Assembly: GCA_024206195.1 (NCBI GenBank)
Contig: JAAGZO010000675.1
Location: 1 to 17,564 of the forward strand
Reading direction: 5' to 3'
Origin: a bacterium
Lineage (GTDB): Archaea > Nanoarchaeota > Nanoarchaeia > Woesearchaeales > UBA10216
Length of the DNA: 17,564 nt
The notes below the pieces were generated by a model that was not told where the DNA came from, ran no database searches, and worked only from the letters and a program-made list of their open reading frames with translations. This document shows, piece by piece, positions 431-17,543 of the stretch (the stretch's first letter is position 1; every line of letters begins with the position of its first letter). The position numbers and the translations under genes are program-made.

Positions 431-3400
431 CTCAGGTGGGAGTTTAAGTGTAAATGGAGTGCAGCCGATAAGTATAATGCAGGGGAGCAATTCTATATAT
501 GTAGATATATATGGTTCAGAGTTCTCGACAGCAGCTGTTGTTACGATTTCTGATTCTGATGTTAATGTCGATTCATATCACTGGAGTAATACAGGATACA
601 TGTATATGTTTGTCAGTGTTTCTTCAGTGGCTGCAACTGGTTTTAAAACAATACGAGTAACGAATCCGGATACCAGTTATGCTGAATTTTATAATTTTAG
701 TATACAACAGGCGGGATCAGGCGGTAGTGGTGCGCCAACAGGAATTGACGTTTTTGCCATGCCATGGAATCCTCAGGTAAATGGAACTTCCACACTGGAA
801 GCATGGATAAAAGATAATAATCATAATAATGTTCCTGATGCCAGTAATCCCGTATCTTTTGTAAGGACATCCGGTCTTGGTAATTTTTCAGGATACAGCG
901 CAGCAGTTGATTCCGTTACAGTTGATGCAGTTAATGGTTTAGCATCGATAGATTATATAGCTTCATCTACTTCCGGTTATGTATATATAGAGGCAATGTC
1001 CCCGGGGCTTTACAGCGGATATATGGATCTGCAGGTTATGGAAGAAGGTTCTTCTTCAAATTTTGGGACAATATCCGGAGATATGTCTTACAACGGTTCC
1101 AGTATGGGATCCTCATCTACTTTTAAAATAGAAGTATTTGATAATCCTCAATTTTCAAGCTCGCCGGTAGTTTCAAAACAGATGACTCAGACCGGGTATT
1201 ATGAGATAAATAATGCGCCGGCAAATATGGACCTTTATATAAGGGCATATAGGGATATTAACTTTAATGGGAGTTTTGACAGTGCAAGTGATCCGAATGG
1301 CGCATATAATATGTATGGTTCCACTTTACCACAGTCCATATGGCTTAATCCGTATGGGTATATGTCAAGTATTTTTATTGAGGTGAATGATGCGGGAGTA
1401 ACTCCATCTGATATGTATGTGGATTATGTTTCACCGTTTCAGCTTTCTCAGGGTGGCGGATCAATTATAGTTGATGTATACGGGAATTTTGTAACAGATG
1501 TTTCTTCGGATACATCAATTTCTTTTAGCCCTTCAATACAGGTTTCAACAAAAACTGTTATGAGTTCATCCCATATCAGACTTACGTTAAATATCACTGA
1601 GTCTATACTTCCCGGATACTATGATATTATACTAAAAGATAACAGAGGCAGCTACTCTAATAAGACACTTTTTGGTGCAATTCAGATAGTAGGAACGACA
1701 AATTCAGGTGAACCTTCAATGATATCATGTTATCCCATGCCGAGTAGTTTGCCTGCTGACGGTGCTTCGGAATCAACGATAAGAGCAGAAATAGTAGATT
1801 TTAATTTTAATATGGTAGGCAGTGCAACAAATGATGTAACTTTCAGCTTAACAGGCCCAGGTACTCTTGTGGGCGACAATCCGGTAGCTGCAGTAAATGG
1901 CGTAGCAACAATAAATGTCATGGCAGGTTCTGTTCAAAATACAAGTATTGAAATAAAAGCGGAGTCTTCAGGACTTTCTGATGGCTGGGCATATGTGTCC
2001 ATGTACTCAACAAGTAGCGGTTCCAGTTATGCTACTGTATCCGGTTTTATTAATTATTACGGTACTTATTCCAGTGCGTCAGGTGATATTTATGTGTTAC
2101 TAACAAGCTCATCCAGTCTAGCTTCAACTATTGATGTTACGGTAGATACTTCAACAATAAAGGTTTATACAAAAGCTGCAGCCGATAAGAGCTATAATAT
2201 GCCGGATGTACCGTCATATGAGACACTATATCTTATGTGCTTTAAGGATTTGAATTCTGATAAAAAATATGACAGTTCAAGTGAACCTTATGCATTTTTA
2301 CCTTATCCGCATAACATGTCTATGCCGGAACCGTTATATTTTATGCCGTACGAAATGAGGTATTTTGATGTTTTTATGAATGATCCGGGCTCCAGTGCTT
2401 TAACAGCATTTATTAATGAAATACAGCCTTACAGTTTTTCACTACCTACTGTAGGTACAACATATTATTTTACTATTTTTGGTGATGGTATGGCTTCGGG
2501 AGATACAATTGAGCTTAAATCTCCTTCGGGATCACTTGATGTTACATCGTCGGAATACCTGGATTCGCATTCACTAAAGGGCAGTGTTTTAATACAAAGC
2601 AGTGATTATCCCGGAAGTTACGATATAGTATTAAAGGACATGGCCGATGGCGTTAAAGCCATGGCTCCGGGTATGGCATATCTGGCCGGGCAGACAAATA
2701 CGGGTTCCGGTCAGGCTACTCAAATTATGTGCTGGGCGGATATGTACAGTATACCGGCAGATAGCCAGACAACAACAATTATACATGCCGAGATAGTAGA
2801 TGCTAATTACAACAGGGTTACAAATGCTACGGATAAAATTACATTTTCGGTATCAGGAGCATTGGATGTAGTTTCAGTTAATCCGACATATGCAAGTTAC
2901 GGAGAGGCACAGCTGACAGTTCAGGCAAAAGGGTCTTCTGATGATGTGAGAATCACAGCATCTGCACAGGATCTTGTAAGCGGAAATGTGGAAATTAATA
3001 CATATGATCCGGGTTCGGGATCAGCATATGCCACAATTGATGGTAATGTGTTTTATTCCGGAAGCGAACCGGGGAGTAAGTATGTAAAGGCAATACTTGC
3101 GCCGCCACCTCCCGGGCCGGCAGGATTTACACAACTTGAAACCATAGCTTCAACAGCAGCCCTGGCTGCTTTGGGTTTGCATGATGGCGAAAAGAATATG
3201 CTTACGCTTGATGCAATGAGCAGGACAATAAATTCAGATCTTCAGGGAGCAAATCAGGACGTAGTTGAAGAACTCATAAATAATTTTCCACATGGAGGTT
3301 GGCTGGGTACTTCAGCTGCTGACAACTTTGGACATTACAAGATTAATGATGCGAATTCCCAGATAGACCTTATGGTCTTTGCTTTTGTAGATGTTAACAG

Positions 3401-6400
3401 TGACGGTATGTTTGCAAAGGACCCTGTTACACCTTCATATGAACCGTTTGGATTTTATAAATTTTACGGCACAATGGGAGACCATCCTGCTGTTTTATGG
3501 CTTATGCCAAATGATTTTATGAATTACGTTAATATAGACATTAAGGATCCTGTCGCTGGCGGCAGTGAACTTGATATACAGGTATATGGGATAGATCCTC
3601 CTTCTTTCCCGCAGGCGCTTCCCGGCCAATCGGCTACTACTAAAAATGTATGGGTATATGGTAGCGGCTTCGTGCCGGGGAGCGTTTTAAGTTTCTATCC
3701 CAATAATCCGCCTATTTCGGTGACAAATACAAATTACATTGATCAATACTCACTGACTGCTGAAATTGAGATTTCTTCAAATGTATATGCAGGTGATTAT
3801 GATGTGGTAGTTACTTCAGCTAACAGTTCGGCAAAATCTTATAAAATATTCCATATAGACAGTTCCATGGGGTCAAATAGTATATCGGGTGTTGTTACAT
3901 ATTCGGGAGGTGATGGAGCTACAGGTAAAATATATGTGGGTGTATTTAAGGGTAATTCAGCCGAAGGAGAACCATTCATGGGTACGCAATCTGTGTCAGA
4001 TTCAACCGACACATACAGTTATAGTTTTTCTGGTTTGCCTGATGGCCAGTATAGTGTATATTCAATAATGGATACGGATGGTACCGGTACGGATGAAGAT
4101 CCGAAAGAACCATTTGGAATGTGTCCGGAAAATCCTATTTACTTATATGGCGGTATAGCAAAAACTAATGCTGATATTCAACTATTCAAGATGTCGTATA
4201 ATAGTACTTATATTTCAGGTGTTTCTCCTCCGTCTCTGGAGCAGGGAGAAACTGACAGGCAGATTACGTTATTCGGAGGTAACTTAAGCGGTGCTGTAAA
4301 CCTGAATTTCGGTCCGGGTGTAACTGTTACAACTTTTACTGCTACCGAATATGACATAATTGCTACTGTAAGTATTTCTACTTCCGCATATCTGGGTGAC
4401 AGAACAGTTCAGGTAACGGATAATACCGATTATATTGCAAATGCAATGGGGATATTCAGAGTTACAGGAGTAGGTGTTACCGGCTCCGGTAAGATAAACG
4501 GTACTATATCTTATGTGAGCTCGGATGGATCGGGAAGCGGTACGAAAGGCGGGACTATTATAACTGCCATATGGCGTGGTGGGCTTTTCCAGGGACCGCC
4601 GTTAAAAGAAGTATATAATACTTATCTGACTACAGCGCCATCTCCGGCAAATTATGAAATAAGCGGTCTGGATAGTGACAATTACAGTATATTTGCATTT
4701 GTAGATTTAAACAGTGATTACGTTCCCGATATGAATGAACCACAGGCAATTTATCAGTTTAATCCTGTATATGTAAGTGACGGATTAACTACCAGAGTTG
4801 ATATGACTATTTTTGATTATGCCAGTTCCGGAGGTAGCAATATAACTGTAACGGATGTAATGCCGAAATATGTAATGGCAGGTACTCAGGTTGCAGTGGA
4901 AGTTTATGGGTCGGGTTTTCAGAGTGACTCAAAAGTACTTTTTGGCCAGGGAATAAGTATCTCAAGTTCTACTCCTGTAACAGTCAGTACAGCTACAGGT
5001 AGAATTACTGCTGAAATTAATATAGCAGATAATGCTAATGAAGGATTTAGAAATGTTAATGTAACAAATTCCGATGGTTCCTTCGGTATAGGTATGAATA
5101 TGCTTATTGTTCAGCCGTCAATGGCTACTCAGCAGCTTGCAGCAGGAGATGGTTCTATTTCAGGTACTTTATTTAATAATTCAGGTTCAACAGGAACTTA
5201 TGTAATAGCTCTCTGGGATGGATATATATTCAATGGTCCGCCGGTAAGGATGGAAACTATGGCGGCTCCTGCCGGTGTGGCATCATCTACTTATTCAATA
5301 ACAGGTCTGGCAGATTCAAGCCAGTATTATCTTGGAGTTTATATTGATACTAATGACAATATGATGCCTGATCATGATCCTTTTCTTGGTCTGGAGGAAC
5401 CTGAAACCGTATATGGAAGTTTTGATTCGCCAAGAGCAATTATTGTAAGTGGTGGTTCCCAGGTGAAAAATGTAAATTTGACATTTGAGCAGGCTGTAAC
5501 GATAGATGTAAAAGAGTTTATGCCGAATGTAATGTCAATTGGTACAAGTCAGGATATATATATATTCGGATATGGATTCAGTTCATCAATTACAACTTCT
5601 CATGTTAGTATAAGCGGACCGGATATTACATTAAATAGTGTAAGGCATATTGATTTTTCACAGATTGTTCTGGATATTACAATAGCAGCTGGCGCGCCAG
5701 TCGGAGTAAGGACAGTTACAATAACAAATCCCGGTGATGCAACTACTGCAAGCGGTACGATAGAACTTGTAGCTTCGGTAGGTGAGATGGTAACAGCTAC
5801 AGGAGAAGAACCATTTGATGTGATAGTAAAGGATGATTCGGGAAGTCCAATTGAAAACGCTCTTGTTATGGCCGTAAGCTTTAATGCCATGAATTTTGAG
5901 CCTGATGCGACTATCAGCCGTTCCGGATATACAAAATCCGATGGAAGAGTTACGTTGTATCTTAGGGCTAATAAGGATTATATGATAGCTGCCGGTAAAC
6001 ATATGTATAAATCTTCAATAAAGGTTCAGATGATGAGTCCTTCAAATGTGCCGGTCAGAACAACAGCCGGTTCAAAAACTGTAACACTTACAAGAAGACC
6101 GGATCCTGATTATGCTACAACGCAGGAGTATGAAAAAGTGGGTATAATTACAGGCAAGATATCTAACGTACGGCTTTCAAGTACACCAAGAGTGTTGTTG
6201 ATGTCGGTAGATAATAGGAGAACTTATGAGCCGGTGAATTTTGCGATGATATCAGCAGCGTCTAAAACCATTTATTATTCGATAGGAAATATTCCTATAA
6301 CCTCAAGGACAGATGAATATCAGGTAAATATATTTGATCCGGCATTTGGTATAGGTACAGGTGCAGAAATTACTTCTGCCGTACTTGTAAGTGAAGATGG

Positions 6401-9400
6401 TACTACAAATGCATTGGAAGTTAATCTTGATTTTGAGGATGTTGAGAGCCTTTCCACTACAGGTGATAAGGAAGTAACGAGAACCGATGATTCGGCCTTT
6501 GAAGGACTTATCTATGAAGATTTAAACAGTAATGGTTCTTATGATGAAGGTGAAGGTATAGAAAACGCAAGAATAAGATTCCGTTCATATGCATATAGAG
6601 ATGACGGTATGAATTCCGGTATAGAAGGCGAAATAGAAGTTGTTACAAATGCAAGTGGAAAGTATACCTTGTATGGTTTACCGTTATATCAGACAAGTGA
6701 TTCGGGAGCTGATTACTATACACCTGTGAATTACGTAGGGCCGTCAGGTGGAACACCAAATAATAATACATATAGTGTAACGGTATTTGTTCAGGGATAT
6801 AATGGTGTAAATGATTTCTATGGTTCTGCCAGCGGTAAGTATTCGGATTATGAAAGGACTTATGCCGGTTCCAAGAAAACACTTAATTATCCTTTAAGTC
6901 AGGCAACCGGAAGTATTAACGGATATGTATATCTTGGAAGTGTGGGAGATGGTAATAAAATTCCGGCAGATATTAATGTCTGGCCGGATCATAATAGTTA
7001 CGGTAATATGCCGTCTAATCCTGGTTTATCGCATGGGCATACAAGAGCAGATAATGGATTATTTGAATTGACAGGACTTGGAGATGGAAATTATATGCTG
7101 AATATATGGAGTGAATTCAGCCAGCGCGGTTTTGAGTATAATTATGGAGATGACGGTCAGTATGGCGGCGGAGATGATTTAAGGGTAACAGTTAAAGATG
7201 GTAGTTATGCCGTATATCAGGCATCAAGCGGTATAAAAGTGGCGGATACAACTAATCCTATTAACATAATACTGAAGCAGCAGGGTGTCTCCGGTATAAC
7301 TGCTGATTGTAATGTGAGAGGAACTGTTACGCTTTTAAAGAGTGGCATGGATCTTACCGGTACAATGGTGGTTGCAAGAGAGGACTGGAATTCAATTAGT
7401 GAAAATGATGAATGGGGTAACAGGCGTCCGCCAAGAACAAGTTTTGTACAATTAGGAACAGCTACGGTAGTTAATAATACAATAACATATGAGATTACTA
7501 TTCCTACGGGCTCGTATTATGTAAGGCTTAATTCACAGAAAAATGGTGTGCTTGGCGAGCCTGAATACAGAGTCCAATTTCAGGATACAGGTTCTGTAAG
7601 AAATAATGTTGATTTTGACATTGCTCCGGCGGGAAGGATAAGAGGAGTTGTAAGACTACCTAACGGAAAATTGTTTATACCGGATTGGAATCAGCAGCAA
7701 TGGATGTGGATAAATGCAGAAGGTGAAAATGTTGACTGCTGGTCCGGTACCGATGTAAATGATAAGGGGGAGTTTAATATAAATGGAGTTCTACCTGGAA
7801 TCTACACATTGATGTCACATTTACCGGAGTCTATTGATTATGCTAATCCGTTTGTAGAAAATGTTATAGTAACAGCGGGTCAGGAAACAATAGTAAATAT
7901 AGATCTTCAGGATGCCAATGATCTTGTACATCAGGTTACAGGGCTGCCGGGTGATCCTGCCGAGATGAGAGAAACAGGCAGCGGTAATCTGGTTTCTAAT
8001 GTGGCTATATTAGCAATAGAATCCGGTAAAGAATTTACTATTGCGGATGATATACTGGATATGGGTGAGGAAACTCCTTCATCAACGTATGCGGATTGGG
8101 GTTCGATTCAGGGTGGAGCATCAAGCTGGGGTTGGTCTGCACTTAAATTAAGTCCCGGTGAATATGATTTTTATTTAACTTATTTCAGCCAGTTCGGAGG
8201 GGGAGGAGATCACGGTACTCCAGGGTTCAGCTGGTCAAATGAAACTGCATTTGGAACAATTCTGGATAAAGCAACAGGAGTCACACTGTCTACGGAAACT
8301 ATTAGTTTTACATATAGTAAAGGTTTATATGAAATAAGCGGAAGCGCTAAAGGACAGAATGTATTTACTGAGGAAGATATAAAGAAAGCTTCAACAAATT
8401 TTGATTATTTCATAAGCCTTATACCAAAGATAACAATACTTGATTCAAATGGTATCCAGAAAGCAGGTGGCGCTGTAATTCCTAAAATAGGTACTTTTGA
8501 CGGATCAAATTGGTCAGGTATGGCTGTACTTGAACAGTTAGATGAGTGGATAGAAACAAGTAATGTAGCTGCTGTTATAAATTATTTCAATAATCCTGCA
8601 AATGTTCAATATAAAATTGGAGGATTGGCCGCAGGTGATTATACACTGGTAGCAAAATCAAAAAATTATCCGCCGGTTGTGAAACGGGTGACAATAGGGT
8701 CTTCAAATATAGTTCAGAATATTGATTTTGATTCTGATGTAAGTGAATCAGGCAGATTAACCGGAACTGTAAAAGTGAAGAATTCAACTGAGACTATAGC
8801 CGGAGCAACAATAGTATTGACAATTGGAACAGAACAGAAGAAAGCAAATTCAGGGATTGATGGTATATACACATTTGACGGACTACCTGGCGGTAATTAT
8901 AAGGTTAAGGTTACTGCTTCAGGATATGGGTTTAAGGAAGATAAGGTTGTAATAACGAAGGGGCAAATTGTTACAAAGAACTTTGAATTTGAAGAAGTGG
9001 TAAGGAGTTCATTAACAGGAACGATATATAAACAGAAAATACCATATCCAAGAACATATGCAGGAGCAACTGTAGTGCTTCTAGATCAGACGGAACAGGC
9101 TGCATCGGACAAGAAAATTGCTACAAAATTTGAAACAACTACAGGGGATAACGGACAATATTCGTTTACTGATCTTGCTTCAGGACATGTTTTTAAACTG
9201 TATGTTGTAGTTCCGGGATATAAACTGGCTGAATATACGATATCAAAGGCAACTTATACAGAGACACAGGATGTTGTCCTTCAATCTGATCCTCCGAATG
9301 TATCTATATTCCAGTGGCGTGACGAGAATGATGATATTCAGTTCCAGATTGAGTCTAATAAGCTTCTTGTAACAAAACCTACAGTTAATTTTATTCAAGG

Positions 9401-10613
9401 GCTGTCAAATGTGAATGTGTCAGCATTTATAGTAGAAGGTTTAGATAAAATTTATAAAATGACAATTTATAAAGCCGTTAATGCAGCAGAGATGGATATT
9501 GCGGATTTTCCGGCTTCCGGTTTTGATATAGAACAGGATATAGGTATAAGAGTTGTAGGTACCGACGGATCACAGGAGGGAGTTGGTACGGCAACACTTA
9601 ATCTGAAATCAAAGGCTAAGGTTGAACAGATACTATCTACTTTAATAGCTGTCGGAGGAGATGTCTCTGTAGATAAATCAGGAACAGACAAATCAAAAAT
9701 TACAATTAATCCGGGGGCGCTTACAACTACAGGTTCGGATGTAACGCCTACAATTACAATTGATAAGACTTCAGTTGGTGATGAGACTGCAATTGATGAT
9801 GAAGAAACAGGATTAACAGCCAGCAATATTTACTCACTTGATATAGAAAATGCGGTGTTGGCAGGAGACAGTCCGCTGACATTGACTTTTGACTATGATG
9901 AAACAAAAGATACTGAGTCAGTTACTGTATGTTATTATGATGCCGGAGCTGATCAGTGGAGCGCAATAGATACAACTGTAACAAAGGACCTTGTATCGGG
10001 TACGCTGGAAATAGACGTTACAGCAAGTGATATAACAACAACATCCGGGGCTTCTATGTTTGCTTCCGCACCATATATTAAAGGTAAAGGCTATGTTGCT
10101 GCAAAAGCTGTTATACCTGAGCCTGTAAGAAAGGCCAATACAATTTTATCAGGTGTAAAATTTGCTGTGTTTACTGCAGCACCTGATTATACTATTGCCG
10201 AAGAAGAACAGGGACAGGTAGAGGCAAATGCTACGTATAGCGGTGATGAATTCAGGATATATAATTTCCCGAATCCATTTTCTCTTGAAAGTAAAACGGT
10301 AAGACTAGCTAATACCGGTACAAATTCAGCTTTAGCCGGAGATAAGACGGTTACAGGAACAGTGCTTAAATACTACTTTCCTACTAAGTATGATGGCAAA
10401 GCAGTTAAATTTTATATATATAATATTGCCGGTGAATTAGTGAGAGTGATAGATGATGAACCGGCACGTGACGGAGGATATATATATTTCAGCGAGTGGG
10501 ATGGAAAAAATGATAATGGGAAAAAGTGTGCCAGCGGAATATATTTCATGTTTTCAAAAATTGATGGTAGTACAGTGACAGATAATCCATTGAAAGCGGC
10601 AATAGTTAAATAG
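3..10613 (+). CDS. Giant modular secreted surface protein with FlgD-like C-terminal sorting domain (5' partial)
   Basis: The frame is open to the left edge, so the true start and signal peptide lie outside; ATG at 6 is mid-module and is not a start. Numbering residues from that ATG, beta-rich modules repeat. Module A has an 'SGxVxYxG' opening, a 'GPPV' loop, an acidic DxNxDxxxDxxEP loop and a 'VNIxLxD' end. Module B is IPT/TIG-like. Module C is Big-1-like. The order is A tail (1-32), A-B-C (38-349), A-B-C (353-669), A-B-C (676-1002), then A-B four times (1006-1925). Next come carboxypeptidase-regulatory-like segments, an SdrB-like segment (about 2160-2300, 'EDLNSNGSYDEGEG'), more such segments (8755-9300 nt) and a ZU5-like region (about 3205-3355). 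The C-terminus has FPNPF (3421-3425), WDG (3498-3500) and 'CASGIYF' (3508 on), as in FlgD-Ig-like or type IX sorting domains. Likely an extracellular adhesin or cell-surface scaffold; its ligand is unknown. Confidence 0.9.
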   Translation, partial: SMTEPYMEKADGVHVSSGQAVIDVNMVLDDPSGGPSAGSISGVTIYTGSSTGTLRVLYWNEPGRGGPPIGSTVALTASATTWTYTLADLTTPATFYLTSFIDSNANSQFDSMTEPYMEKADGVHVSSGQAVIDVNMVLDDPSGSGGSLSVNGVQPISIMQGSNSIYVDIYGSEFSTAAVVTISDSDVNVDSYHWSNTGYMYMFVSVSSVAATGFKTIRVTNPDTSYAEFYNFSIQQAGSGGSGAPTGIDVFAMPWNPQVNGTSTLEAWIKDNNHNNVPDASNPVSFVRTSGLGNFSGYSAAVDSVTVDAVNGLASIDYIASSTSGYVYIEAMSPGLYSGYMDLQVMEEGSSSNFGTISGDMSYNGSSMGSSSTFKIEVFDNPQFSSSPVVSKQMTQTGYYEINNAPANMDLYIRAYRDINFNGSFDSASDPNGAYNMYGSTLPQSIWLNPYGYMSSIFIEVNDAGVTPSDMYVDYVSPFQLSQGGGSIIVDVYGNFVTDVSSDTSISFSPSIQVSTKTVMSSSHIRLTLNITESILPGYYDIILKDNRGSYSNKTLFGAIQIVGTTNSGEPSMISCYPMPSSLPADGASESTIRAEIVDFNFNMVGSATNDVTFSLTGPGTLVGDNPVAAVNGVATINVMAGSVQNTSIEIKAESSGLSDGWAYVSMYSTSSGSSYATVSGFINYYGTYSSASGDIYVLLTSSSSLASTIDVTVDTSTIKVYTKAAADKSYNMPDVPSYETLYLMCFKDLNSDKKYDSSSEPYAFLPYPHNMSMPEPLYFMPYEMRYFDVFMNDPGSSALTAFINEIQPYSFSLPTVGTTYYFTIFGDGMASGDTIELKSPSGSLDVTSSEYLDSHSLKGSVLIQSSDYPGSYDIVLKDMADGVKAMAPGMAYLAGQTNTGSGQATQIMCWADMYSIPADSQTTTIIHAEIVDANYNRVTNATDKITFSVSGALDVVSVNPTYASYGEAQLTVQAKGSSDDVRITASAQDLVSGNVEINTYDPGSGSAYATIDGNVFYSGSEPGSKYVKAILAPPPPGPAGFTQLETIASTAALAALGLHDGEKNMLTLDAMSRTINSDLQGANQDVVEELINNFPHGGWLGTSAADNFGHYKINDANSQIDLMVFAFVDVNSDGMFAKDPVTPSYEPFGFYKFYGTMGDHPAVLWLMPNDFMNYVNIDIKDPVAGGSELDIQVYGIDPPSFPQALPGQSATTKNVWVYGSGFVPGSVLSFYPNNPPISVTNTNYIDQYSLTAEIEISSNVYAGDYDVVVTSANSSAKSYKIFHIDSSMGSNSISGVVTYSGGDGATGKIYVGVFKGNSAEGEPFMGTQSVSDSTDTYSYSFSGLPDGQYSVYSIMDTDGTGTDEDPKEPFGMCPENPIYLYGGIAKTNADIQLFKMSYNSTYISGVSPPSLEQGETDRQITLFGGNLSGAVNLNFGPGVTVTTFTATEYDIIATVSISTSAYLGDRTVQVTDNTDYIANAMGIFRVTGVGVTGSGKINGTISYVSSDGSGSGTKGGTIITAIWRGGLFQGPPLKEVYNTYLTTAPSPANYEISGLDSDNYSIFAFVDLNSDYVPDMNEPQAIYQFNPVYVSDGLTTRVDMTIFDYASSGGSNITVTDVMPKYVMAGTQVAVEVYGSGFQSDSKVLFGQGISISSSTPVTVSTATGRITAEINIADNANEGFRNVNVTNSDGSFGIGMNMLIVQPSMATQQLAAGDGSISGTLFNNSGSTGTYVIALWDGYIFNGPPVRMETMAAPAGVASSTYSITGLADSSQYYLGVYIDTNDNMMPDHDPFLGLEEPETVYGSFDSPRAIIVSGGSQVKNVNLTFEQAVTIDVKEFMPNVMSIGTSQDIYIFGYGFSSSITTSHVSISGPDITLNSVRHIDFSQIVLDITIAAGAPVGVRTVTITNPGDATTASGTIELVASVGEMVTATGEEPFDVIVKDDSGSPIENALVMAVSFNAMNFEPDATISRSGYTKSDGRVTLYLRANKDYMIAAGKHMYKSSIKVQMMSPSNVPVRTTAGSKTVTLTRRPDPDYATTQEYEKVGIITGKISNVRLSSTPRVLLMSVDNRRTYEPVNFAMISAASKTIYYSIGNIPITSRTDEYQVNIFDPAFGIGTGAEITSAVLVSEDGTTNALEVNLDFEDVESLSTTGDKEVTRTDDSAFEGLIYEDLNSNGSYDEGEGIENARIRFRSYAYRDDGMNSGIEGEIEVVTNASGKYTLYGLPLYQTSDSGADYYTPVNYVGPSGGTPNNNTYSVTVFVQGYNGVNDFYGSASGKYSDYERTYAGSKKTLNYPLSQATGSINGYVYLGSVGDGNKIPADINVWPDHNSYGNMPSNPGLSHGHTRADNGLFELTGLGDGNYMLNIWSEFSQRGFEYNYGDDGQYGGGDDLRVTVKDGSYAVYQASSGIKVADTTNPINIILKQQGVSGITADCNVRGTVTLLKSGMDLTGTMVVAREDWNSISENDEWGNRRPPRTSFVQLGTATVVNNTITYEITIPTGSYYVRLNSQKNGVLGEPEYRVQFQDTGSVRNNVDFDIAPAGRIRGVVRLPNGKLFIPDWNQQQWMWINAEGENVDCWSGTDVNDKGEFNINGVLPGIYTLMSHLPESIDYANPFVENVIVTAGQETIVNIDLQDANDLVHQVTGLPGDPAEMRETGSGNLVSNVAILAIESGKEFTIADDILDMGEETPSSTYADWGSIQGGASSWGWSALKLSPGEYDFYLTYFSQFGGGGDHGTPGFSWSNETAFGTILDKATGVTLSTETISFTYSKGLYEISGSAKGQNVFTEEDIKKASTNFDYFISLIPKITILDSNGIQKAGGAVIPKIGTFDGSNWSGMAVLEQLDEWIETSNVAAVINYFNNPANVQYKIGGLAAGDYTLVAKSKNYPPVVKRVTIGSSNIVQNIDFDSDVSESGRLTGTVKVKNSTETIAGATIVLTIGTEQKKANSGIDGIYTFDGLPGGNYKVKVTASGYGFKEDKVVITKGQIVTKNFEFEEVVRSSLTGTIYKQKIPYPRTYAGATVVLLDQTEQAASDKKIATKFETTTGDNGQYSFTDLASGHVFKLYVVVPGYKLAEYTISKATYTETQDVVLQSDPPNVSIFQWRDENDDIQFQIESNKLLVTKPTVNFIQGLSNVNVSAFIVEGLDKIYKMTIYKAVNAAEMDIADFPASGFDIEQDIGIRVVGTDGSQEGVGTATLNLKSKAKVEQILSTLIAVGGDVSVDKSGTDKSKITINPGALTTTGSDVTPTITIDKTSVGDETAIDDEETGLTASNIYSLDIENAVLAGDSPLTLTFDYDETKDTESVTVCYYDAGADQWSAIDTTVTKDLVSGTLEIDVTASDITTTSGASMFASAPYIKGKGYVAAKAVIPEPVRKANTILSGVKFAVFTAAPDYTIAEEEQGQVEANATYSGDEFRIYNFPNPFSLESKTVRLANTGTNSALAGDKTVTGTVLKYYFPTKYDGKAVKFYIYNIAGELVRVIDDEPARDGGYIYFSEWDGKNDNGKKCASGIYFMFSKIDGSTVTDNPLKAAIVK
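306..5402 (+). repeat. Seven in-frame acidic DxNxDxxxDxxEP loops marking the A modules
   Basis: Loops of the form D-x-[ND]-x-[DN]-x3-6-D...[ED]-P occur at 306-347, 1254-1295, 2247-2288, 3390-3446, 4071-4112, 4704-4742 and 5346-5402. Start-to-start distances are 948, 993, 1143, 681, 633 and 642 bases. The longer distances belong to A-B-C units and the shorter to A-B units; the 1143-base interval includes an insertion. The acidic spacing resembles dockerin, EF-hand and thrombospondin type 3 Ca-binding loops. Calcium binding is inferred, not shown. A related loop at 6519-6560 belongs to the SdrB-like segment. Confidence 0.75.
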
Positions 10614-10760
10614 CTATAAGCTGTAGGCTTTAAGCTATAAGGTGGAAAAGAGTTATTTGTGAAAATATAGAAGATGATTGTAATAAATATGGAAAAGTTG
10701 TGAGTTTTAATTCCAGAAAAATAGTTATGCTTATGACTTACAGCTTACGGCTTATAGCTG
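10611..10760. repeat. Heptad inverted-repeat element 1 (giant gene | porV)
   Basis: The left arm at 10612-10641 is four degenerate heptads of the AGCTNTA type plus AG. The right arm at 10730-10760 is CTTATGA, CTTACAG, CTTACGG, CTTATAG, CTG. Reverse-complementing the right arm aligns it to the left over 30 bases with five mismatches, mostly at the variable heptad positions. The left arm overlaps the TAG stop of the surface-protein gene. The loop is about 88 bases, AT-rich and without a gene. Unlike the other elements, the right arm here is not followed by GGGTRGG; a conventional AGGAGGG ribosome site for porV follows instead. Confidence 0.85.
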
Positions 10761-11822: not shown

Positions 11823-12698
11823 ATGAATAATAATTCAGCACACGCTATTTTACTTATATCCTGTTCTGACCGGCGAGGACTTATAGCGGCAGTAACAGAC
11901 TTTATCTATAAGAATAACGGGAATATAGAAGATGTTGATCAGCATGTAGATAAGGACAGTGGAATATTCTTTATGCGAATAGAGTGGTCTCTGGACGGAT
12001 TTGGTATTTCAAGAGAAAACATCTATGATGCATTTTCTCCTGTTGCAAAAAACTATAATATGAATTGGAATCTCTATTTCACTGACATAAAACCAAAGGT
12101 TGCAATATTTGTGTCAAAACAACTTCATTGTCTTTATGATCTACTGTATCGTTATAAGGAAGGTCAGTTTAATATAGATATCCCTGTTATTATATCAAAC
12201 CATCCTAATGCAAAAGAACTGGTAGAAACCTTTGGAATCAAATTTTTTGAAATTTCAAAAAATAAAACAAATAAGGCTGAACAGGAGAAAAAAGAATTGC
12301 AGATTCTGGAAGAAAAAGAAGTAGAGCTGGTTGTATTAGCCAGATATATGCAGATTCTTACCAGGCAGTTTGTGGACAGATTTCCTAATAAAATGATAAA
12401 TATTCACCATTCGTTTTTACCGGCTTTTATGGGCGCTAAACCCTATGAGCAGGCTTACAGGAGGGGAGTAAAAATAATAGGTGCTACAAGTCATTATGTT
12501 ACCGAAGAACTTGATGCCGGGCCAATTATAGAACAGGATGTAGTAAGGGTGAGTCACAGGGATTCTGTTGAAAATATGCAGAATAAGGGTGAAGATCTGG
12601 AGAAGGTTGTGCTGGGCAGAGCTGTTAGATGGTATGTTGAACGGAAAATACTTGTTTATGGAACAGACGGCGGATCTAAAACTGTTGTATTTGATTAA
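11823..12698 (+). CDS. purU: Formyltetrahydrofolate deformylase
   Basis: The enzyme hydrolyses 10-formyltetrahydrofolate to tetrahydrofolate and formate, balancing the cytoplasmic one-carbon pool and supplying formate. The 291 residues match the usual length of about 280. An N-terminal ACT domain (about 8-88, 'SCSDRRGLIAAVTDFIY') is followed by a formyltransferase fold with 'NIHHSFLPAFMGAKPY' and 'ELDAGPI'. The catalytic triad of the family maps to N193, H195 and D231, with the expected 38-residue gap between N and D. The product ends 'LVYGTDGGSKTVVFD'. No ribosome-binding site precedes the ATG; alignment with the E. coli enzyme by eye supports this start, which agrees with a leaderless message. 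The gene has its own promoter and sits between porV and the Rnf cluster without an obvious functional tie to either. Confidence 0.95.
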   Translation: MNNNSAHAILLISCSDRRGLIAAVTDFIYKNNGNIEDVDQHVDKDSGIFFMRIEWSLDGFGISRENIYDAFSPVAKNYNMNWNLYFTDIKPKVAIFVSKQLHCLYDLLYRYKEGQFNIDIPVIISNHPNAKELVETFGIKFFEISKNKTNKAEQEKKELQILEEKEVELVVLARYMQILTRQFVDRFPNKMINIHHSFLPAFMGAKPYEQAYRRGVKIIGATSHYVTEELDAGPIIEQDVVRVSHRDSVENMQNKGEDLEKVVLGRAVRWYVERKILVYGTDGGSKTVVFD

Positions 12699-12877
12699 TA
12701 AGTTGTAAGCCATAAGCTGTAAGCCTTAAGAAAAATACAGATAATATGGTGAATAGTATATAGCACATAAAGAGACAACAGACTAGAGACCAAACAATAT
12801 CAAAATACTTAATAAAAAGTTTGAATTGATATTTGTGATTTATATTAATACAGCTTATAGCTTACAGCTTACAGCTG
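12699..12877. repeat. Heptad inverted-repeat element 2 (purU | rnfC)
   Basis: The left arm at 12699-12730 begins at the base after the purU TAA and reads TAAGTTG, TAAGCCA, TAAGCTG, TAAGCCT, TAAG. The right arm at 12854-12877 reads CTTATAG, CTTACAG, CTTACAG, CTG, with a decayed unit before it. The arms pair in heptad register. The right arm runs directly into GGGTGAGATTAAGGGTGAG and then the rnfC ATG. The AT-rich loop of about 120 bases has no gene but may contain a promoter (TTGAAT at 12821-12826, TATTAA at 12843-12848). Confidence 0.85.
12821..12848 (+). promoter_or_regulatory. Possible promoter of the rnf cluster
   Basis: TTGAAT (12821-12826) and TATTAA (12843-12848) are 16 bases apart and lie 53 bases upstream of the rnfC ATG, inside the loop of the repeat element. 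The boxes are imperfect and the surroundings are AT-rich, so chance matches are likely. Confidence 0.3.
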
Positions 12878-12900: not shown

Positions 12901-14163
12901 ATGTTTGGTGGATTAAAAATAAAAGCAAATAAAGAAAATACAAGGTTTGAAAAAATTGAAAACCTTCCTTTTCCCGAAGAAGTAGTAATATACAGTTCTC
13001 AGCATATAGGCGCTCCTTCAAAAATTATTGTAAAAAAGGGTGATGTTGTACAAAAGGGCCAGTTAATAGGAGAATGTCAGGGTTTGTGTTCAATGAATCT
13101 GCATGCATCCATAGGCGGAAAAGTAAAGAGTATTTCAAAGATAGCCCGGCCTGGAGGCATAGTGTGCGATGCTGTAATAATGAGCAAGGAAGGCGATCAA
13201 ACAATAACTTTAATGGAGCCGTTAAATGAATTAACACCTGAAAAAATAAGAGCTAGAGTAAAAGAAGCAGGTATTGTTGGATTGGGAGGTGCTGGATTTC
13301 CTACGCATTTAAAACTTAATCCCCCAAAAGAAATAGATACAGCTTTTCTTAATGGGTGTGAGTGTGAACCTTATCTTACTTCAGATGAGCGATTAATGAT
13401 AGAAAATTCACAGAAAATTGTTGAAGGATTTTTATTTGTTAAAAATGCTACCGGAGCTAAAGAGGGCGTTATTGTTATAGAAGATGATAAAATCGATGCT
13501 ATTAGATATATGAAAATGGCAGCATCAAGATATAAGGATATAAGAGTAGTTGTGCTGCCAAAAGTTTATCCCCAGGGGTACGAAAAGAGACTTATAACTG
13601 CAGTTACAGGCAAAGAAGTTCCTTCCGGCGGGCTTCCGCATGATGTGGGAGTGTCTGTACATAATGTAGGAACGTGCTTTGCTGTGTATGAAGCGGTGCG
13701 GGAAGGTAAACCCCTGATAGACCGGGTATTGACATTGACAGGACCTGAAGTAATAAATGGTGTAAATGTCCGGGCAACGCTGGGAATGAGTATTAAGGAA
13801 ATTCTTGGTTATTACCAGGTCGAATCAAGAGATTCATATGAGATTCTAATGGGCGGACCCATGATGGGATTTTCTCTTGATTCTATAGATCTGGCAATAC
13901 TAAAAACAACATCGGGAATTCTAGTGAAATTACCGGAAAAACAGAGTGAATATCCATGCTCCGTATGCGGAAAATGTGTGGAAGTGTGTCCTATGAGACT
14001 GGTGCCGCAGAGATTAAACCGGTTTTTTGATGGTGGAGATTGTGCTAAACTGAATGAAGAAGGCTTGTTTGATTGTATGGAATGCGGAAGCTGCAGTTAT
14101 ATATGTCCGTGTAATATACCATTAACTTATAAATTCAAAGCAGCAAAAACTAGATGTAATTAA
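12901..14163 (+). CDS. rnfC: Rnf complex subunit RnfC (NADH-binding, FMN and two 4Fe-4S)
   Basis: This is the cytoplasmic, NAD(H)-reacting subunit of the Rnf ion-pumping ferredoxin:NAD+ oxidoreductase. The 420 residues are similar to the compact anaerobe form rather than the long enterobacterial RsxC. It has an N-terminal barrel-sandwich region ('HIGAPSKIIVKKGD', 'NLHASIGGKV'), the FMN/NADH-site motif GLGGAGFPTH from residue 127, 'NGCECEPY' from 151, and two 4Fe-4S sites: C353/C356/C359/C363 and C392/C395/C398/C402. The start is supported by AAGGGTGAG at 12887-12895, five bases before ATG. That GGTGAG-type site lies in the conserved tail of repeat element 2. The gene is followed directly by repeat element 3 and then rnfG, without the usual rnfD. 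Confidence 0.95.
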   Translation: MFGGLKIKANKENTRFEKIENLPFPEEVVIYSSQHIGAPSKIIVKKGDVVQKGQLIGECQGLCSMNLHASIGGKVKSISKIARPGGIVCDAVIMSKEGDQTITLMEPLNELTPEKIRARVKEAGIVGLGGAGFPTHLKLNPPKEIDTAFLNGCECEPYLTSDERLMIENSQKIVEGFLFVKNATGAKEGVIVIEDDKIDAIRYMKMAASRYKDIRVVVLPKVYPQGYEKRLITAVTGKEVPSGGLPHDVGVSVHNVGTCFAVYEAVREGKPLIDRVLTLTGPEVINGVNVRATLGMSIKEILGYYQVESRDSYEILMGGPMMGFSLDSIDLAILKTTSGILVKLPEKQSEYPCSVCGKCVEVCPMRLVPQRLNRFFDGGDCAKLNEEGLFDCMECGSCSYICPCNIPLTYKFKAAKTRCN

Positions 14164-14253
14164 TAAGCTGTAAGCCTTAAGCTTTAAGCTGTAAGAAAGA
14201 TAATAAAAACTTAATTTTATTACTTATGGCTTAAGGCTTATGTCTTACAGCTG
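14164..14253. repeat. Heptad inverted-repeat element 3, in the place of rnfD
   Basis: The left arm at 14164-14195 begins right after the rnfC TAA and is TAAGCTG, TAAGCCT, TAAGCTT, TAAGCTG, TAAG. The right arm at 14223-14253 is CTTATGG, CTTAAGG, CTTATGT, CTTACAG, CTG. Only 27 bases separate the arms, so this is the tightest hairpin of the family. GGGTGGGATTGGGTGAG follows, before the rnfG ATG at 14282. Nothing resembling rnfD remains in this 118-base gap. Confidence 0.9.
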
Positions 14254-14281
14254 GGTGGGATTGGGTGAGTGAGTATAAGTT

Positions 14282-14803
14282 ATGAATAAAAAAGAATCTG
14301 GAATAAAAATGTTGATTGTTTTAACCGGAGTCTGTCTTCTTTCGGCAGCAGTACTGGGTTACATACACATATCAACATTTGAAAGAATTGAGAAGAATAG
14401 AATTAAGCGTATTGAAGAGGCTGTAAGTAATGTATTGCCCGGTATAACTGATTATGAAAAAGTCAGTTCGGATCCCGTTATTTTCAAAGGTAAAAATGGT
14501 GATGCAGATGCCGGGTACGCTGTTTTGTCTTCGGGGATGGGTTTTCAGGGGGATATAGTACTTATGGTTGGATTAGACAGTACAATTAATAATATAGAAG
14601 GTGTTGTTATATTAGAATCGGTTGAGACACCCGGTCTTGGTGATAAGATAAGAGAATTAGATTTCTTAAAACAGTTTCAGGGAAAGAATGTGTCCTCTGA
14701 TAGTGAAATAGGAGTGGATGCAATAACAGGAGCAACAATATCTTCAGTTGCTGTAGGTAAGATAATTAATAAGGCAGTGGAGTATGCTAAAAGAATTTTT
14801 TAA
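14282..14803 (+). CDS. rnfG: Rnf complex subunit RnfG (covalent FMN)
   Basis: The 173-residue protein has an N-terminal membrane anchor (about 8-28) and an extracytoplasmic FMN-binding domain. Family motifs seen are 'ESVETPGLGDKI' and D146-A-I-T-G-A-T152; in this family FMN is bound through a phosphoester to the threonine equivalent to T152. In the complex it takes electrons from the RnfA/E iron-sulfur site and hands them on, normally to the flavin of RnfD. The last 20 bases overlap rnfE, which suggests translational coupling. The nearest ribosome-site-like sequence (GGGTGAG, 14263-14269) lies 12 bases before the ATG, somewhat far, with a second GTGAG just after it. Confidence 0.93.
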   Translation: MNKKESGIKMLIVLTGVCLLSAAVLGYIHISTFERIEKNRIKRIEEAVSNVLPGITDYEKVSSDPVIFKGKNGDADAGYAVLSSGMGFQGDIVLMVGLDSTINNIEGVVILESVETPGLGDKIRELDFLKQFQGKNVSSDSEIGVDAITGATISSVAVGKIINKAVEYAKRIF

Positions 14804-15371
14804 AGGACTCTGGAAAGAAAATCCGGTATTAAGACAGCTTTTAGGAATGTGTCCTACGCTGGCTGTTACTACATCTGCAGTAAATGGAATGTCAATGGGT
14901 ATTGCAACTACATTTGTTGTAGTAAGTTCCGGAATAATAGTTTCTATTTTTAGAAAAATAATACCTGCTCAGGTAAGGATACCGGTGTTTACTGTTATTA
15001 TAGCAACATTTGTTACAGTAGTGGATATGGTATTAAAGGCTTATTTTCCTGATATAAGTAAAGCGCTGGGGCCGTATGTACCGCTTATTGTTGTTAATTG
15101 TCTTATTTTAGGAAGGCAGGAAGCGTTTACATCAAAAAATCCGCTGCATCTTTCCATATGTGATACACTTGGCATGGGGCTTGGATTTACATTTGTTTTA
15201 ACAATATTGGGCAGTGTCAGAGAACTGCTTGGATCCGGCAGTTGGTTTGGTATCGGTGTTATGCCTGTTACATTCAGGCCGCTGGTTATAATGGTATTAC
15301 CGGCAGGAGCATTTATTACTCTTGGTATTATAGCTGCGTGTTATAATCTGGTAAATCATAAGAGAGGGTAG
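14784..15371 (+). CDS. rnfE: Rnf complex membrane subunit RnfE
   Basis: This is a 195-residue polytopic membrane protein of the RnfA/RnfE (NqrE/NqrD) family. It opens with the family start 'FKGLWKENPVLRQLLGMCPT' and carries 'VVNCLILGRQEAF'. Cys23 and Cys106 are the conserved pair that, with two cysteines of RnfA, hold a 2Fe-2S cluster within the membrane in solved Rnf/Nqr structures. It forms the channel core together with RnfA. The start lies inside the end of rnfG with GTGGAG just upstream, consistent with coupled translation. The rnfA start follows eight bases after the stop. Confidence 0.95.
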   Translation: MLKEFFKGLWKENPVLRQLLGMCPTLAVTTSAVNGMSMGIATTFVVVSSGIIVSIFRKIIPAQVRIPVFTVIIATFVTVVDMVLKAYFPDISKALGPYVPLIVVNCLILGRQEAFTSKNPLHLSICDTLGMGLGFTFVLTILGSVRELLGSGSWFGIGVMPVTFRPLVIMVLPAGAFITLGIIAACYNLVNHKRG

Positions 15372-15379
15372 GAGATAAA

Positions 15380-15967
15380 ATGGTTTTAATTTCAATTTTT
15401 GTTTCAGCTGTTCTGGTTAATAATTTTGTATTATATTATTTTCTGGGAATATGCCCTTTTTTGGGGGTGTCTTCAAAACTGGATTCTTCTATAGGTATTG
15501 GTATGGCCACAACGTTTGTTATGACCATGACAGCACTTGTTACCTGGCCGGTAAATCATTATATAATATCTTCAGAAACAGGTTTAAATCTTCCATTTCT
15601 GGAATATGTGTCGTTTATTATTGTTATAGCAACGCTGGTTCAGTTTGTAGAAATGTTTTTAAGAAAATATTTTCATAATCTGTATAAATCATTGGGAATA
15701 TATTTACCCTTAATAACAACCAATTGCGCTATTCTAGGAATGGCACTTTTTATGGTTTTAAGGGAGTACAGTTATATTGAAACTATGGTATTTGGTTTTG
15801 GCGCCGGTGTCGGATTTACTATGGTAATAGTAATAATGGCCGGTATACGTGAAGAAATACAATATGCTCCGGTTCCGGAAATATTTAAAGGTGCGCCAAT
15901 AACATTGATTACTGCAGGGCTTCTTGCACTTGCTTTTATGGGGTTTTCGGGTATAATTGCACCATAA
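15380..15967 (+). CDS. rnfA: Rnf complex membrane subunit RnfA
   Basis: This 195-residue membrane protein, with about six hydrophobic segments, is the pseudo-symmetric partner of RnfE. Conserved cysteines are C25 in 'FLGICPFLGVS' and C116 in 'TTNCAILGMALF', the expected ligands for the shared intramembrane 2Fe-2S cluster. 'NNFVLYYFLGICPF' is typical of the family. AGGAG at 15370-15374 overlaps the rnfE stop and sits five bases before the ATG. The order G-E-A is compact, as in other Rnf operons. A 361-base repeat-rich gap follows before rnfB. Confidence 0.95.
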   Translation: MVLISIFVSAVLVNNFVLYYFLGICPFLGVSSKLDSSIGIGMATTFVMTMTALVTWPVNHYIISSETGLNLPFLEYVSFIIVIATLVQFVEMFLRKYFHNLYKSLGIYLPLITTNCAILGMALFMVLREYSYIETMVFGFGAGVGFTMVIVIMAGIREEIQYAPVPEIFKGAPITLITAGLLALAFMGFSGIIAP

Positions 15968-16063
15968 ATAGTGAAAATAAGCTGTAAGCTCTAAGTTGTA
16001 AGCGGTAAGTTGAAAAGGAGAAAAGTAAGCAAATATCAAAATTTCAATGACCAAAATACAAAA

Positions 16064-16209
16064 TAAGCTTTAAACCGTAAGCTATTAGCAAAAAGGATTA
16101 TTATTCTTATTACAAGAAGCTAGTATAGAGCGGCTTTAGCCGCCACCAGAGTGTAACAAGCGAGACAGGCTTTTGTCTGGTGATGCTTAGAGTTTAAGGT
16201 TTACAGCTG
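16064..16209. repeat. Heptad inverted-repeat element 5, inner copy nested in element 4
   Basis: The left arm at 16064-16089 is TAAGCTT, TAAACCG, TAAGCTA, TTAGC. The right arm at 16186-16209 is CTTAGAG, TTTAAGG, TTTACAG, CTG, followed by GGGTAGG as in the outer copy. The order left-left-right-right shows that one element lies within another. The inner copy is more decayed than the outer, and its flank lacks the terminal GGGTGAG. Confidence 0.75.
16130..16182. other. GC-richer block with nested hairpins inside the inner repeat
   Basis: GCGGCT (16130-16135) pairs with AGCCGC (16138-16143). CACCAGA (16144-16150) pairs with TCTGGTG (16176-16182) around an inner stem AGACA/TGTCT (16163-16167 and 16174-16178). 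No T-run follows, so it is not a standard terminator, and no open frame or tRNA fold is visible. The base composition differs from the AT-rich surroundings. It could be a separate repeat or a structured RNA. Confidence 0.5.
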
Positions 16210-16328
16210 GGTAGGTTTTGAATTTGGTAATAACATTATAAATTGGTATTTGTTGCTTGTTTTTTATAGTCTTATGGCTTAAAGCTTAAAGCTTAAAGCT
16301 GGGTAGGATTTAGGGTGAGAAAAATAAT

Positions 16329-17123
16329 ATGACACTAATACAGAGTATAATAGCATTAGGAAGTATAGGAATATTAGCCGGGATAATACTGGTTATAGCA
16401 TACAATAAACTTAAAGTTGAAGAAGATCCCAGAGTTGAAGAACTAATAGAAGCTCTTCCAGGTACAAACTGCGGAGCATGCGGCTATGCTTCCTGCCATG
16501 AATATGCAGTTTCAATTAATAAGAGTGAATCTGAAACAAACCTGTGTCGTGCCGGCGGAACCGAATTGGGTAGAGTAATTGCAGAAATAATGGGTGTTTC
16601 ACATGAAGATTCTAATGAGATTATGCAGAAAGCTGTTATTAGATGTCAGGCGGAGGAGAGAAAAGCCCTTGCAGAATACACAGGGCCTGAAACCTGTGAA
16701 ACTTCACAACTGCTTGGCGGTGGCACAGCCTGTAAGTATGGTTGTCTTGGATATGGCGATTGTGTTATTGTATGTCCATTTGATGCTATATATCTGGATA
16801 ATAATTCATTGCCAGTAGTAGTATTGGATAAATGTACAGGTTGTGGTTTGTGTTTAAAGGCTTGTCCAAGAAATATTATTGCACTGAAAGATCTTAGAAA
16901 TAAAAGAATAGTGTATGTCGGATGTAACAATGTACAGACCGGACAGGAAACAAGGAAATTATGTGCTTCGGGTTGTATTGCCTGTAAGATTTGCGAAAAA
17001 AAGGGTCCTGAAAACGCATTTACTGTAGAAAATAATCTGGCAGAAGTTCGGAATCAGACTGCGAAATTAGTCATATCTGAGATAAAATGCCCTACTACTT
17101 GTATATATGAAAAAAAAGTATAA
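16329..17123 (+). CDS. rnfB: Rnf complex subunit RnfB (ferredoxin-accepting iron-sulfur protein)
   Basis: RnfB accepts electrons from reduced ferredoxin at the cytoplasmic face. The 264 residues comprise an N-terminal membrane helix (about 5-25), an Fes domain with C48/C51/C56/C73 ('GTNCGACGYASC'), and a ferredoxin part with C135/C139/C145/C149 and C169/C172/C175/C179. A third cysteine-rich set follows (C212, C216, C219, C222), and then a short tail with CPTTC. AGGGTGAG at 16312-16319, from the tail of the repeat element, is nine bases before the ATG. The gene is separated from rnfA by 361 bases, unlike the tight G-E-A block, so separate expression is possible. Confidence 0.95.
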   Translation: MTLIQSIIALGSIGILAGIILVIAYNKLKVEEDPRVEELIEALPGTNCGACGYASCHEYAVSINKSESETNLCRAGGTELGRVIAEIMGVSHEDSNEIMQKAVIRCQAEERKALAEYTGPETCETSQLLGGGTACKYGCLGYGDCVIVCPFDAIYLDNNSLPVVVLDKCTGCGLCLKACPRNIIALKDLRNKRIVYVGCNNVQTGQETRKLCASGCIACKICEKKGPENAFTVENNLAEVRNQTAKLVISEIKCPTTCIYEKKV

Positions 17124-17150: not shown

Positions 17151-17543
17151 ATGAGGTCAGAAAAGTTAAGAGTTAGTGGAATTGTTTTAAGGGCATCCGG
17201 AAATAATATTGAAGTAGAGATTTCTAAGCCTGAAGAATGTAGTGGCTGTGACAGCTGCAGTTGCCTGAAACCCCAAAAAATAAAGCTAAAAACAGAAAAG
17301 AAATTCCAGTCAGGAGATAGAGTATTCCTGAATATTCTATGCTCAAACGTAATAAGTTTATCATTCCTTTTTTATTTATTTCCTGCGCTAGTTGTATTGG
17401 CAGGTTTTATTCTGGGTTATTTGTGGAAGGGGGATCTTGGGGGATTTTCAGGAGCGTTTATCTTTTTATTAATAGGATATATCTGTATGAAAAAATATTC
17501 AGCAGGAAGATATCGGGATATAATAGATATTGAGAAAGAGTAG
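17151..17543 (+). CDS. RseC/MucC-family membrane protein
   Basis: The protein is 130 residues. An N-terminal beta-rich part with a cysteine cluster (C30-x2-C33-x2-C36-x-C38) is followed by two membrane segments (about 67-92 and 99-114) and a charged tail 'RDIIDIEKE'. This is the RseC/MucC layout. In E. coli RseC works with the Rsx (Rnf) complex in reducing SoxR and affects sigma-E. The place 27 bases after rnfB and on the same strand supports a role linked to Rnf, perhaps assembly or redox tuning; its exact job here is inferred. Only a weak ribosome site precedes the ATG. Confidence 0.8.
   Translation: MRSEKLRVSGIVLRASGNNIEVEISKPEECSGCDSCSCLKPQKIKLKTEKKFQSGDRVFLNILCSNVISLSFLFYLFPALVVLAGFILGYLWKGDLGGFSGAFIFLLIGYICMKKYSAGRYRDIIDIEKE

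What the first reader, a model, noticed from the sequence alone, without database searches (positions are those of the whole stretch)
12901..17123. Rnf cluster lacks rnfD
Typical Rnf operons are C-D-G-E-A-B. Here C, G, E, A and B are all intact by length and key residues, but no rnfD is present; the rnfC-rnfG gap is 118 bases. RnfD carries a covalent FMN and helps form the membrane core between RnfG and RnfC, so its absence breaks the accepted electron path. Either rnfD lies elsewhere in the genome, or the complex is rearranged or lacks this subunit.
Basis: partly seen in the sequence, partly recalled or inferred. Interest (0 to 1): 0.8.

Follow-up and report, generated by a model that had tools for sequence, protein, structure and literature searches.

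The report
Rnf operon with rnfD moved elsewhere
This bacterium's Rnf energy-conversion operon really lacks one of its six genes, but in most of its relatives that gene sits intact elsewhere in the genome, so the complex is most likely complete and only its gene layout is unusual.

Summary
The window encodes purU, rnfC, a 118-nt gap, rnfG, rnfE, rnfA, rnfB and an RseC-like gene; a six-frame RnfD profile search finds nothing. It is not a mis-join: rnfC is followed directly by rnfG in all five related genomes where that junction can be read (G001, G002, G003, G007, G009). "D-less Rnf" is not supported. Four of those five carry a full-length rnfD elsewhere; six of the class's eight held genomes do. 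In G002, G003, G008 and G011 it lies near proS, in G007 beside nifS-iscU-cysE with proS 10 kb away, in G009 elsewhere. An ATPL motif (the flavin site, by recall) is kept in 29 of 30 clade RnfD rows. RnfC and RnfD of the group each form one clade. A sister class splits the genes differently: rnfC alone, rnfDGEAB together. In a control phylum 51 of 57 genomes keep rnfC and rnfD within 3 kb. Best reading: an ordinary six-subunit Rnf from a split operon. The window's own genome is not held, so its rnfD is inferred. G001 yields no rnfD; true loss there is not excluded.

The parts
11823..12698 (+). purU (formyltetrahydrofolate deformylase), the conserved upstream neighbour of rnfC in the group
   Evidence: TIGR00655 397.8 bits; also upstream of rnfC in L001, L002, L003, L094, L095
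12901..14163 (+). rnfC, 420 aa
   Evidence: TIGR01945 460.8 bits; aligns over residues 14-416 with 7zc6_C; in a 28-row clade with SH-aLRT 100
14164..14281 (+). 118-nt rnfC-rnfG gap where rnfD would usually lie; a heptamer-repeat hairpin, no rnfD remnant
   Evidence: sequence; inverted repeat 14166-14207/14211-14252; MFE -39.7, z -4.64; no RnfD profile match in six frames
14282..14803 (+). rnfG, 173 aa, with the TGAT motif
   Evidence: FMN_bind 62.1 bits; TIGR01947 99.5 bits, just under the cut-off of 102; VDAITGATISSV; 7zc6_G match
14784..15371 (+). rnfE, 195 aa; overlaps rnfG by 20 nt, as in L002 and L003
   Evidence: TIGR01948 245.8 bits; 9eri_E and 7zc6_E matches; overlaps read
15380..15967 (+). 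rnfA, 195 aa
   Evidence: TIGR01943 246.9 bits; 7zc6_A match
15968..16328 (+). 361-nt rnfA-rnfB gap holding the same heptamer repeats
16329..17123 (+). rnfB, 264 aa
   Evidence: PRK07118-type RnfB model 217.5 bits (under its equivalog cut-off of 252), TIGR01944 105.4 bits (over its cut-off of 68.7); 7zc6_B match
17151..17543 (+). RseC/MucC-family protein, conserved after rnfB in the group
   Evidence: PF04246 67.6 bits; same place in L002, L003, L094, L095, L114

Best explanation
The operon is one half of a split rnf gene set. In the lineage to which the window belongs, rnfD is no longer between rnfC and rnfG and is kept as a single gene elsewhere, most often in a block with proS or with the cysteine desulfurase/IscU/cysE genes. 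The complex would then assemble from all six subunits and work like other Rnf pumps: ferredoxin to RnfB, to RnfA-E, to RnfG, to RnfD, to RnfC, to NAD+, coupled to Na+ or H+ movement. Shown: the D-less operon in the window and in five relatives; rnfD elsewhere in four of those five; the ATPL motif kept. Inferred: that the window's organism has the same distant rnfD; that the subunits assemble; the direction and the coupling ion.
For: (1) The same D-less order purU-C-G-E-A-B-rseC stands in other assemblies: L002, L003, L095 and L094. In G001 rnfG starts at the GTG overlapping the rnfC stop, and the rest of the operon is on another contig. rnfC-rnfG spacing is -4 to +29 nt there, 118 nt in the window. 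(2) PF03116 over its cut-off, 323-333 bits, full length, one such copy each in 6 of 8 class genomes; in the four of them with an RnfC over cut-off the two are on different contigs. (3) That rnfD lies in G002 as rseP-ispG-proS-rnfD-nifS-cysE-mnmA; in G011 as rseP-ispG-proS-HEAT-rnfD-nifS-iscU-cysE; in G003 and G008 as proS-HEAT-TPR-rnfD-ThiI-like; in G007 as rnfD-nifS-iscU-cysE with proS 10 kb away on the same contig. (4) G007 RnfD aligns over its length with 7zc6_D, 9eri_D and 8ahx_D; ATPL motif in 29 of 30 clade rows, some of them near-duplicates. (5) RnfC clade of 28 rows including the window, RnfD clade of 30 rows, each SH-aLRT 100. Among the listed database hits the clade counts are similar: 24 RnfC (P0121-P0144, then a drop from 55 to 46% identity) and 27 RnfD (P0001-P0027, then 55 to 47%) (both scored only the roughly 8000 candidates sharing most words and list the best 120). 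(6) ApbE, the flavin transferase, in 6 of 8 class genomes.
Against: The window's own genome is not held, so no rnfD is shown for it. G001 has the D-less operon and no rnfD was found there; the 235 nt of its contig after proS, and its nifS-iscU-cysE-mnmA region, show no rnfD. G001 is fragmented (its rnf operon spans two contigs) and no completeness figure was given, so this is not proof of loss. No ApbE was found in G003 or G008 although both have rnfD. In G009 rnfD is in neither the proS nor the nifS place. Expression and assembly are untested. One RnfC (P0136) and one RnfD (P0013) are listed with contigs of identical length, 5620 bases, so one clade member may still carry both genes together; its DNA could not be fetched.
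Confidence: 0.88

Rival explanations
1. A truly D-less Rnf: the window's organism has lost rnfD, and the complex works with five subunits or as a half-circuit.
For: No rnfD in the 17.6-kb window; G001 has the D-less operon and no rnfD hit.
Against: rnfD is present in 4 of the 5 relatives with a readable D-less junction and in 6 of 8 class genomes. The nearest relative whose genome is held, G007 (RnfC 65% identical), has a full rnfD. RnfG keeps its TGAT motif, and solved complexes pass electrons from RnfG through RnfD to RnfC (PMC12174285, passages).
Confidence: 0.06
2. Assembly artefact: rnfD was lost from the contig by a mis-join at the repeats between rnfC and rnfG.
For: The gap is made of repeats that recur in other gaps of the window, the kind of place where assemblies can collapse.
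Against: Five other genomes have rnfC followed directly by rnfG, and an exact pattern for the repeat matched none of the 115 loci held then, those five included.
Confidence: 0.02
3. RnfD is replaced in this operon by another membrane protein, for example the short RnfD-like subunit of the second, divergent Rnf-like cluster seen in this class.
For: Five class genomes hold such a cluster with a protein of about 240 aa at the RnfD position; G001, which has the D-less operon and no rnfD hit, is among them.
Against: G002, G007 and G009 have both the cluster and a full-length rnfD. The short protein is only distantly RnfD-like (hhalign E 4e-4, probability 35%) and its cluster has its own C- and G-like proteins.
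Confidence: 0.03

Closest known systems
Rnf complex (RnfABCDGE; solved in 7zc6, 9eri, 8ahx)
   Same: Five window subunits match the solved subunits; a relative's RnfD matches 7zc6_D, 9eri_D and 8ahx_D.
   Different: rnfD is not in the operon; the orders given in PMC4014512 (rnfABCDGE, rnfBCDGEA, and rnfCDGEB as printed; passages) all hold it with the other genes.
Na+-NQR
   Same: Homologous core (NqrB, C, D, E).
   Different: RnfB is present and RnfC carries Fe-S motifs; the four window subunits with Nqr counterparts score better against Rnf than Nqr models, and no NqrF was found among the eight proteins scanned.
NQR/RNF-like two-subunit systems (PMC8238504 passages; PMC10979944 passages)
   Same: They use part of the Nqr/Rnf core.
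   Different: There an RnfD-like domain is fused to an NAD-binding domain, with one RnfG-like partner; here C, G, E, A and B are all present.
Thioalkalivibrio thiocyanoxidans rnfABCE, reported as lacking rnfDG (PMC5328954 passages)
   Same: A reported Rnf set without rnfD.
   Different: It lacks rnfG too and is another lineage; I did not examine its genome.

Membership tests
Rnf complex | RnfC with FMN-binding 51K-like domain, RnfC_N and two 4Fe-4S motifs | tested here: met
   (the Fer4 Pfam matches themselves lie under their cut-offs)
Rnf complex | RnfG with an (S/T)GAT motif for covalent FMN | tested here: met
   TGAT present; flavinylation itself not tested; TIGR01947 score 99.5 against a cut-off of 102
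Rnf complex | Homologous membrane pair RnfE and RnfA | tested here: met
Rnf complex | RnfB ferredoxin-like subunit | tested here: met
   the third motif lacks a Cys
Rnf complex | RnfD with covalent-FMN Thr, encoded in the same genome | tested here: inconclusive
   absent from the window; own genome not held; present in 6 of 8 class genomes; motif in 29 of 30 clade rows
Rnf complex | rnfD in the operon with the other rnf genes (usual, not strictly required) | tested here: not met
   window and five relatives
Rnf complex | Ferredoxin:NAD+ oxidoreductase activity coupled to ion transport | not testable with these tools
   needs membranes or purified complex

The most novel reading that the evidence does not exclude
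In the window's organism, and perhaps in G001, rnfD has been lost altogether after it left the operon. The remaining RnfC-G-E-A-B set would then work without the flavin/riboflavin subunit, for example as a one-way ferredoxin-to-outside electron exporter or with a borrowed RnfD-like partner from the second Rnf-like cluster.
Probability: 0.05. Interest if true: 0.8.

Novelty: new variant of a known kind. Interest (0 to 1): 0.3.

Why it matters
It warns that a gene missing from an rnf operon is not a missing subunit: in this phylum-level group none of the 10 genomes with both genes has rnfC and rnfD on one contig, so operon-based annotation could call the complex incomplete. It also gives a natural case of a membrane pump whose core subunit is encoded at a separate locus, often beside Fe-S/cysteine genes. 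If a genome of the group proves to lack rnfD altogether (G001 is the candidate), the need for RnfD in Rnf could be tested.

Tried and rejected
Own-genome search for RnfD: no genome is held for the window, so relatives had to stand in.

Contig-end artefacts: checked. In the sister class rnfD of G014-G019 has its own upstream gene and is followed by G-E-A-B, so it is not a broken rnfC-rnfD junction; G012 stays open (rnfD starts at a contig end, rnfC ends about 440 nt from one). For G001 I suspected a contig break exactly at proS, but the 235 nt after proS read as the start of another gene (ComM-like, a recalled name), not rnfD, and its nifS region has none either. The missing rnfD of G001 is therefore unexplained.

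Weak RnfC hits in G007:C7 and G008:C42 are rearranged RnfC-like proteins among small repeated genes (PduS in microcompartment loci, by recall), not a second rnfC.

Neighbour gene names (proS, ispG, rseP, nifS, iscU, cysE, mnmA, HEAT, TPR, Lgt, Fur, ZIP, cysK) are my reading of the sequences, recalled and not scanned against a library, except the ThiI-like protein. That the Thr of ATPL in RnfD carries the FMN is recalled, helped by the alignment to 7zc6_D. The name Omnitrophota for the control phylum comes from the record title of L059 alone. A link of the group to CG03/Shingomicrobia is only suggested: PMC12057145 (passages and section 10) reports RnfABCDEG in related lineages, but the three record names I looked for are not in its main text.

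Papers: PMC4014512, PMC12174285, PMC5328954, PMC10117432, PMC11484514, PMC8238504 and PMC10979944: passages only; all others search listings. No title or abstract start describing a displaced rnfD in this group was seen in searches, some of which list only part of the papers that matched.

Full report
What is there. The window carries, on +, a PorV-family gene, purU, rnfC (12901-14163), rnfG (14282-14803), rnfE (14784-15371), rnfA (15380-15967), rnfB (16329-17123) and an RseC/MucC-family gene (17151-17543). There is no rnfD: an RnfD profile built here gives at best 0.9 bits over the six frames of the window, and 417.4 bits on L093, which holds one. The 118-nt rnfC-rnfG gap consists largely of an imperfect inverted repeat of heptamers that folds with z -4.64. 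Related repeats lie in other long gaps of the same region: 20 matches to AAGCTRTAAGC with up to one mismatch, against 0.71 expected.

Is it an artefact? Very unlikely. L002 and L003 read purU-rnfC-rnfG-rnfE-rnfA-rnfB-rseC with rnfC and rnfG overlapping by 4 nt, or 29 nt apart. In G009 (L095) the order is the same with a 4-nt overlap, and in G007 (L094) with 3 nt between. In G001 the contig of rnfC ends inside rnfG, whose GTG overlaps the rnfC stop, and the rest of rnfG and E-A-B-rseC are on a second contig. All five relatives with a readable junction are thus D-less.

How unusual is it? Of the 80 rnfC loci, 60 carry rnfD at the locus. Of the 20 without, 12 show rnfC alone, 6 show A-B-C, and 2 (L002 and L003) show C-G-E-A-B. 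The six A-B-C loci end 47 to 982 nt after the rnfC match (lengths), so they say nothing; of the 12 with rnfC alone, L001 is cut by its contig end and the other 11 seem to be rnfC-like genes outside an rnf operon. In a control phylum (that of L059), 57 of 117 genomes have both rnfC (E up to 1e-90) and rnfD (E up to 1e-60); 51 of 57 have them within 3 kb, and the other 6 have them on different contigs. In the phylum of G003, 16 genomes are held: 12 have RnfC (E up to 1e-75), 13 have RnfD (E up to 1e-30), 10 have both, and 0 of 10 have both on one contig.

Where is rnfD? In the class of G003 (8 genomes) PF03116 finds one full-length RnfD in six (G002, G003, G007, G008, G009, G011) and none in G001 and G010. 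G007 has in addition one weak, partial match, the RnfD-like protein of a second cluster. G010 also has no E/A gene and no full RnfC. In G002 rnfD overlaps proS by 4 nt and nifS follows; in G011 it lies between a HEAT-repeat gene after proS and nifS-iscU-cysE; in G003 and G008 it follows proS, a HEAT and a TPR gene; in G007 it precedes nifS-iscU-cysE with proS about 10 kb away on the same contig; in G009 it lies elsewhere. The sister class (G012-G019) shows another split: rnfC by itself in the seven genomes with rnfC, and rnfD-G-E-A-B together in the seven with rnfD, on a different contig from rnfC in the six that have both; G012 is cut at contig ends and stays open. Both layouts separate rnfC from rnfD, but by different breaks.

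Is that RnfD a working partner? The RnfC tree puts the window among 28 rows of one clade, and the RnfD tree puts the class's RnfD with its database relatives in one clade of 30 rows, both SH-aLRT 100 (quick trees). The sister class joins neither clade, so the trees give no evidence on whether both splits go back to one event. G007 RnfD aligns over its length with three solved RnfD chains, and its TGATPL lines up with TTATPL of 7zc6_D. The ATPL motif is found in 29 of 30 clade rows; P0011 lacks it. The 30 rows hold near-duplicates, such as G007 and P0001. The window's other subunits match the solved Rnf subunits. ApbE is found in 6 of 8 class genomes, not in G003 or G008.

Reading. In solved complexes electrons pass from RnfG through the FMN and riboflavin of RnfD to RnfC (PMC12174285, passages), so a bacterium that keeps RnfC, RnfG and their motifs most likely keeps RnfD. 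The simplest account is a split operon with a complete complex. The neighbourhood of rnfD with Fe-S/cysteine genes is observed in G002, G007 and G011; a regulatory reason for it would be speculation.

Open points. The window's own rnfD is not shown. G001 gives no rnfD, and neither the short stretch after its proS nor its nifS neighbourhood holds it. P0013 (RnfD) and P0136 (RnfC) are listed on contigs of the same length, 5620 bases; it is the only such coincidence I see between the 27 clade RnfD and 24 clade RnfC rows, compared by eye. It may mean that one member keeps both genes on one contig.

Novelty. Searches listed no paper on a displaced rnfD in this group; the library holds open-licence papers only and some listings are partial. 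The complex is known; the gene layout is a variant.

Noticed in passing
L097:1-6000 (G007), L133:3356-6352 (G002), L134 (G009), L135:3516-8905 (G010), L136 (G001): A second, very divergent Rnf-like cluster in five of eight class genomes: HDAC-like gene (not in L136, whose contig starts at the C gene), short RnfC-like (51K domain plus Fer4 in G007 and G010, no RnfC_N), RnfD-like of about 240 aa, an FMN_bind-type protein of about 135 aa, small membrane proteins at the E and A positions (not reached in G002), and a heptaprenyl-diphosphate-synthase-I/Maf gene (not reached in G002); polyferredoxin and NusG_II identified in G007. It keeps the C-D-G-E-A order; hhalign links D, G and A weakly to Rnf (E 4e-4 to 7e-4) and E not at all. 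It differs from the published two-subunit NQR/RNF-like systems.
   Followed up: partly
window 10611-10760, 12700-12877, 14164-14260, 15979-16312: Heptamer tandem repeats (AGCTGTA-like) at the start of intergenic gaps with their reverse complement towards the end; 20 matches against 0.71 expected; no exact match to a longer form in the 115 loci held then.
   Followed up: partly
window 3-10613: An open frame of 3536 aa running in from the window's edge, a giant repeat-rich surface-type protein with an FlgD-like end (names recalled), followed by a PorV-family gene; L094 and L001 have the same pair before purU.
   Followed up: no
window 16329-17123 and L002, L003, L094, L095: RnfB of the group has KGP, KAP or RAP where solved 7zc6_B has a Cys-Pro in the third ferredoxin-like motif, and a short tail with KCPxxC, so it may hold one cluster fewer.
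   Followed up: partly
L004, L006, L008, L011, L015, L016, L021, L022, L025, L026, L035: Eleven loci, clostridial by their record titles where these tell, with an RnfC-like gene at 40-44% identity and no other rnf gene over 40 bits in the DNA held.
   Followed up: no
P0013 and P0136: RnfD and RnfC of the group listed on contigs of identical length, 5620 bases; possibly one contig with both genes.
   Followed up: no
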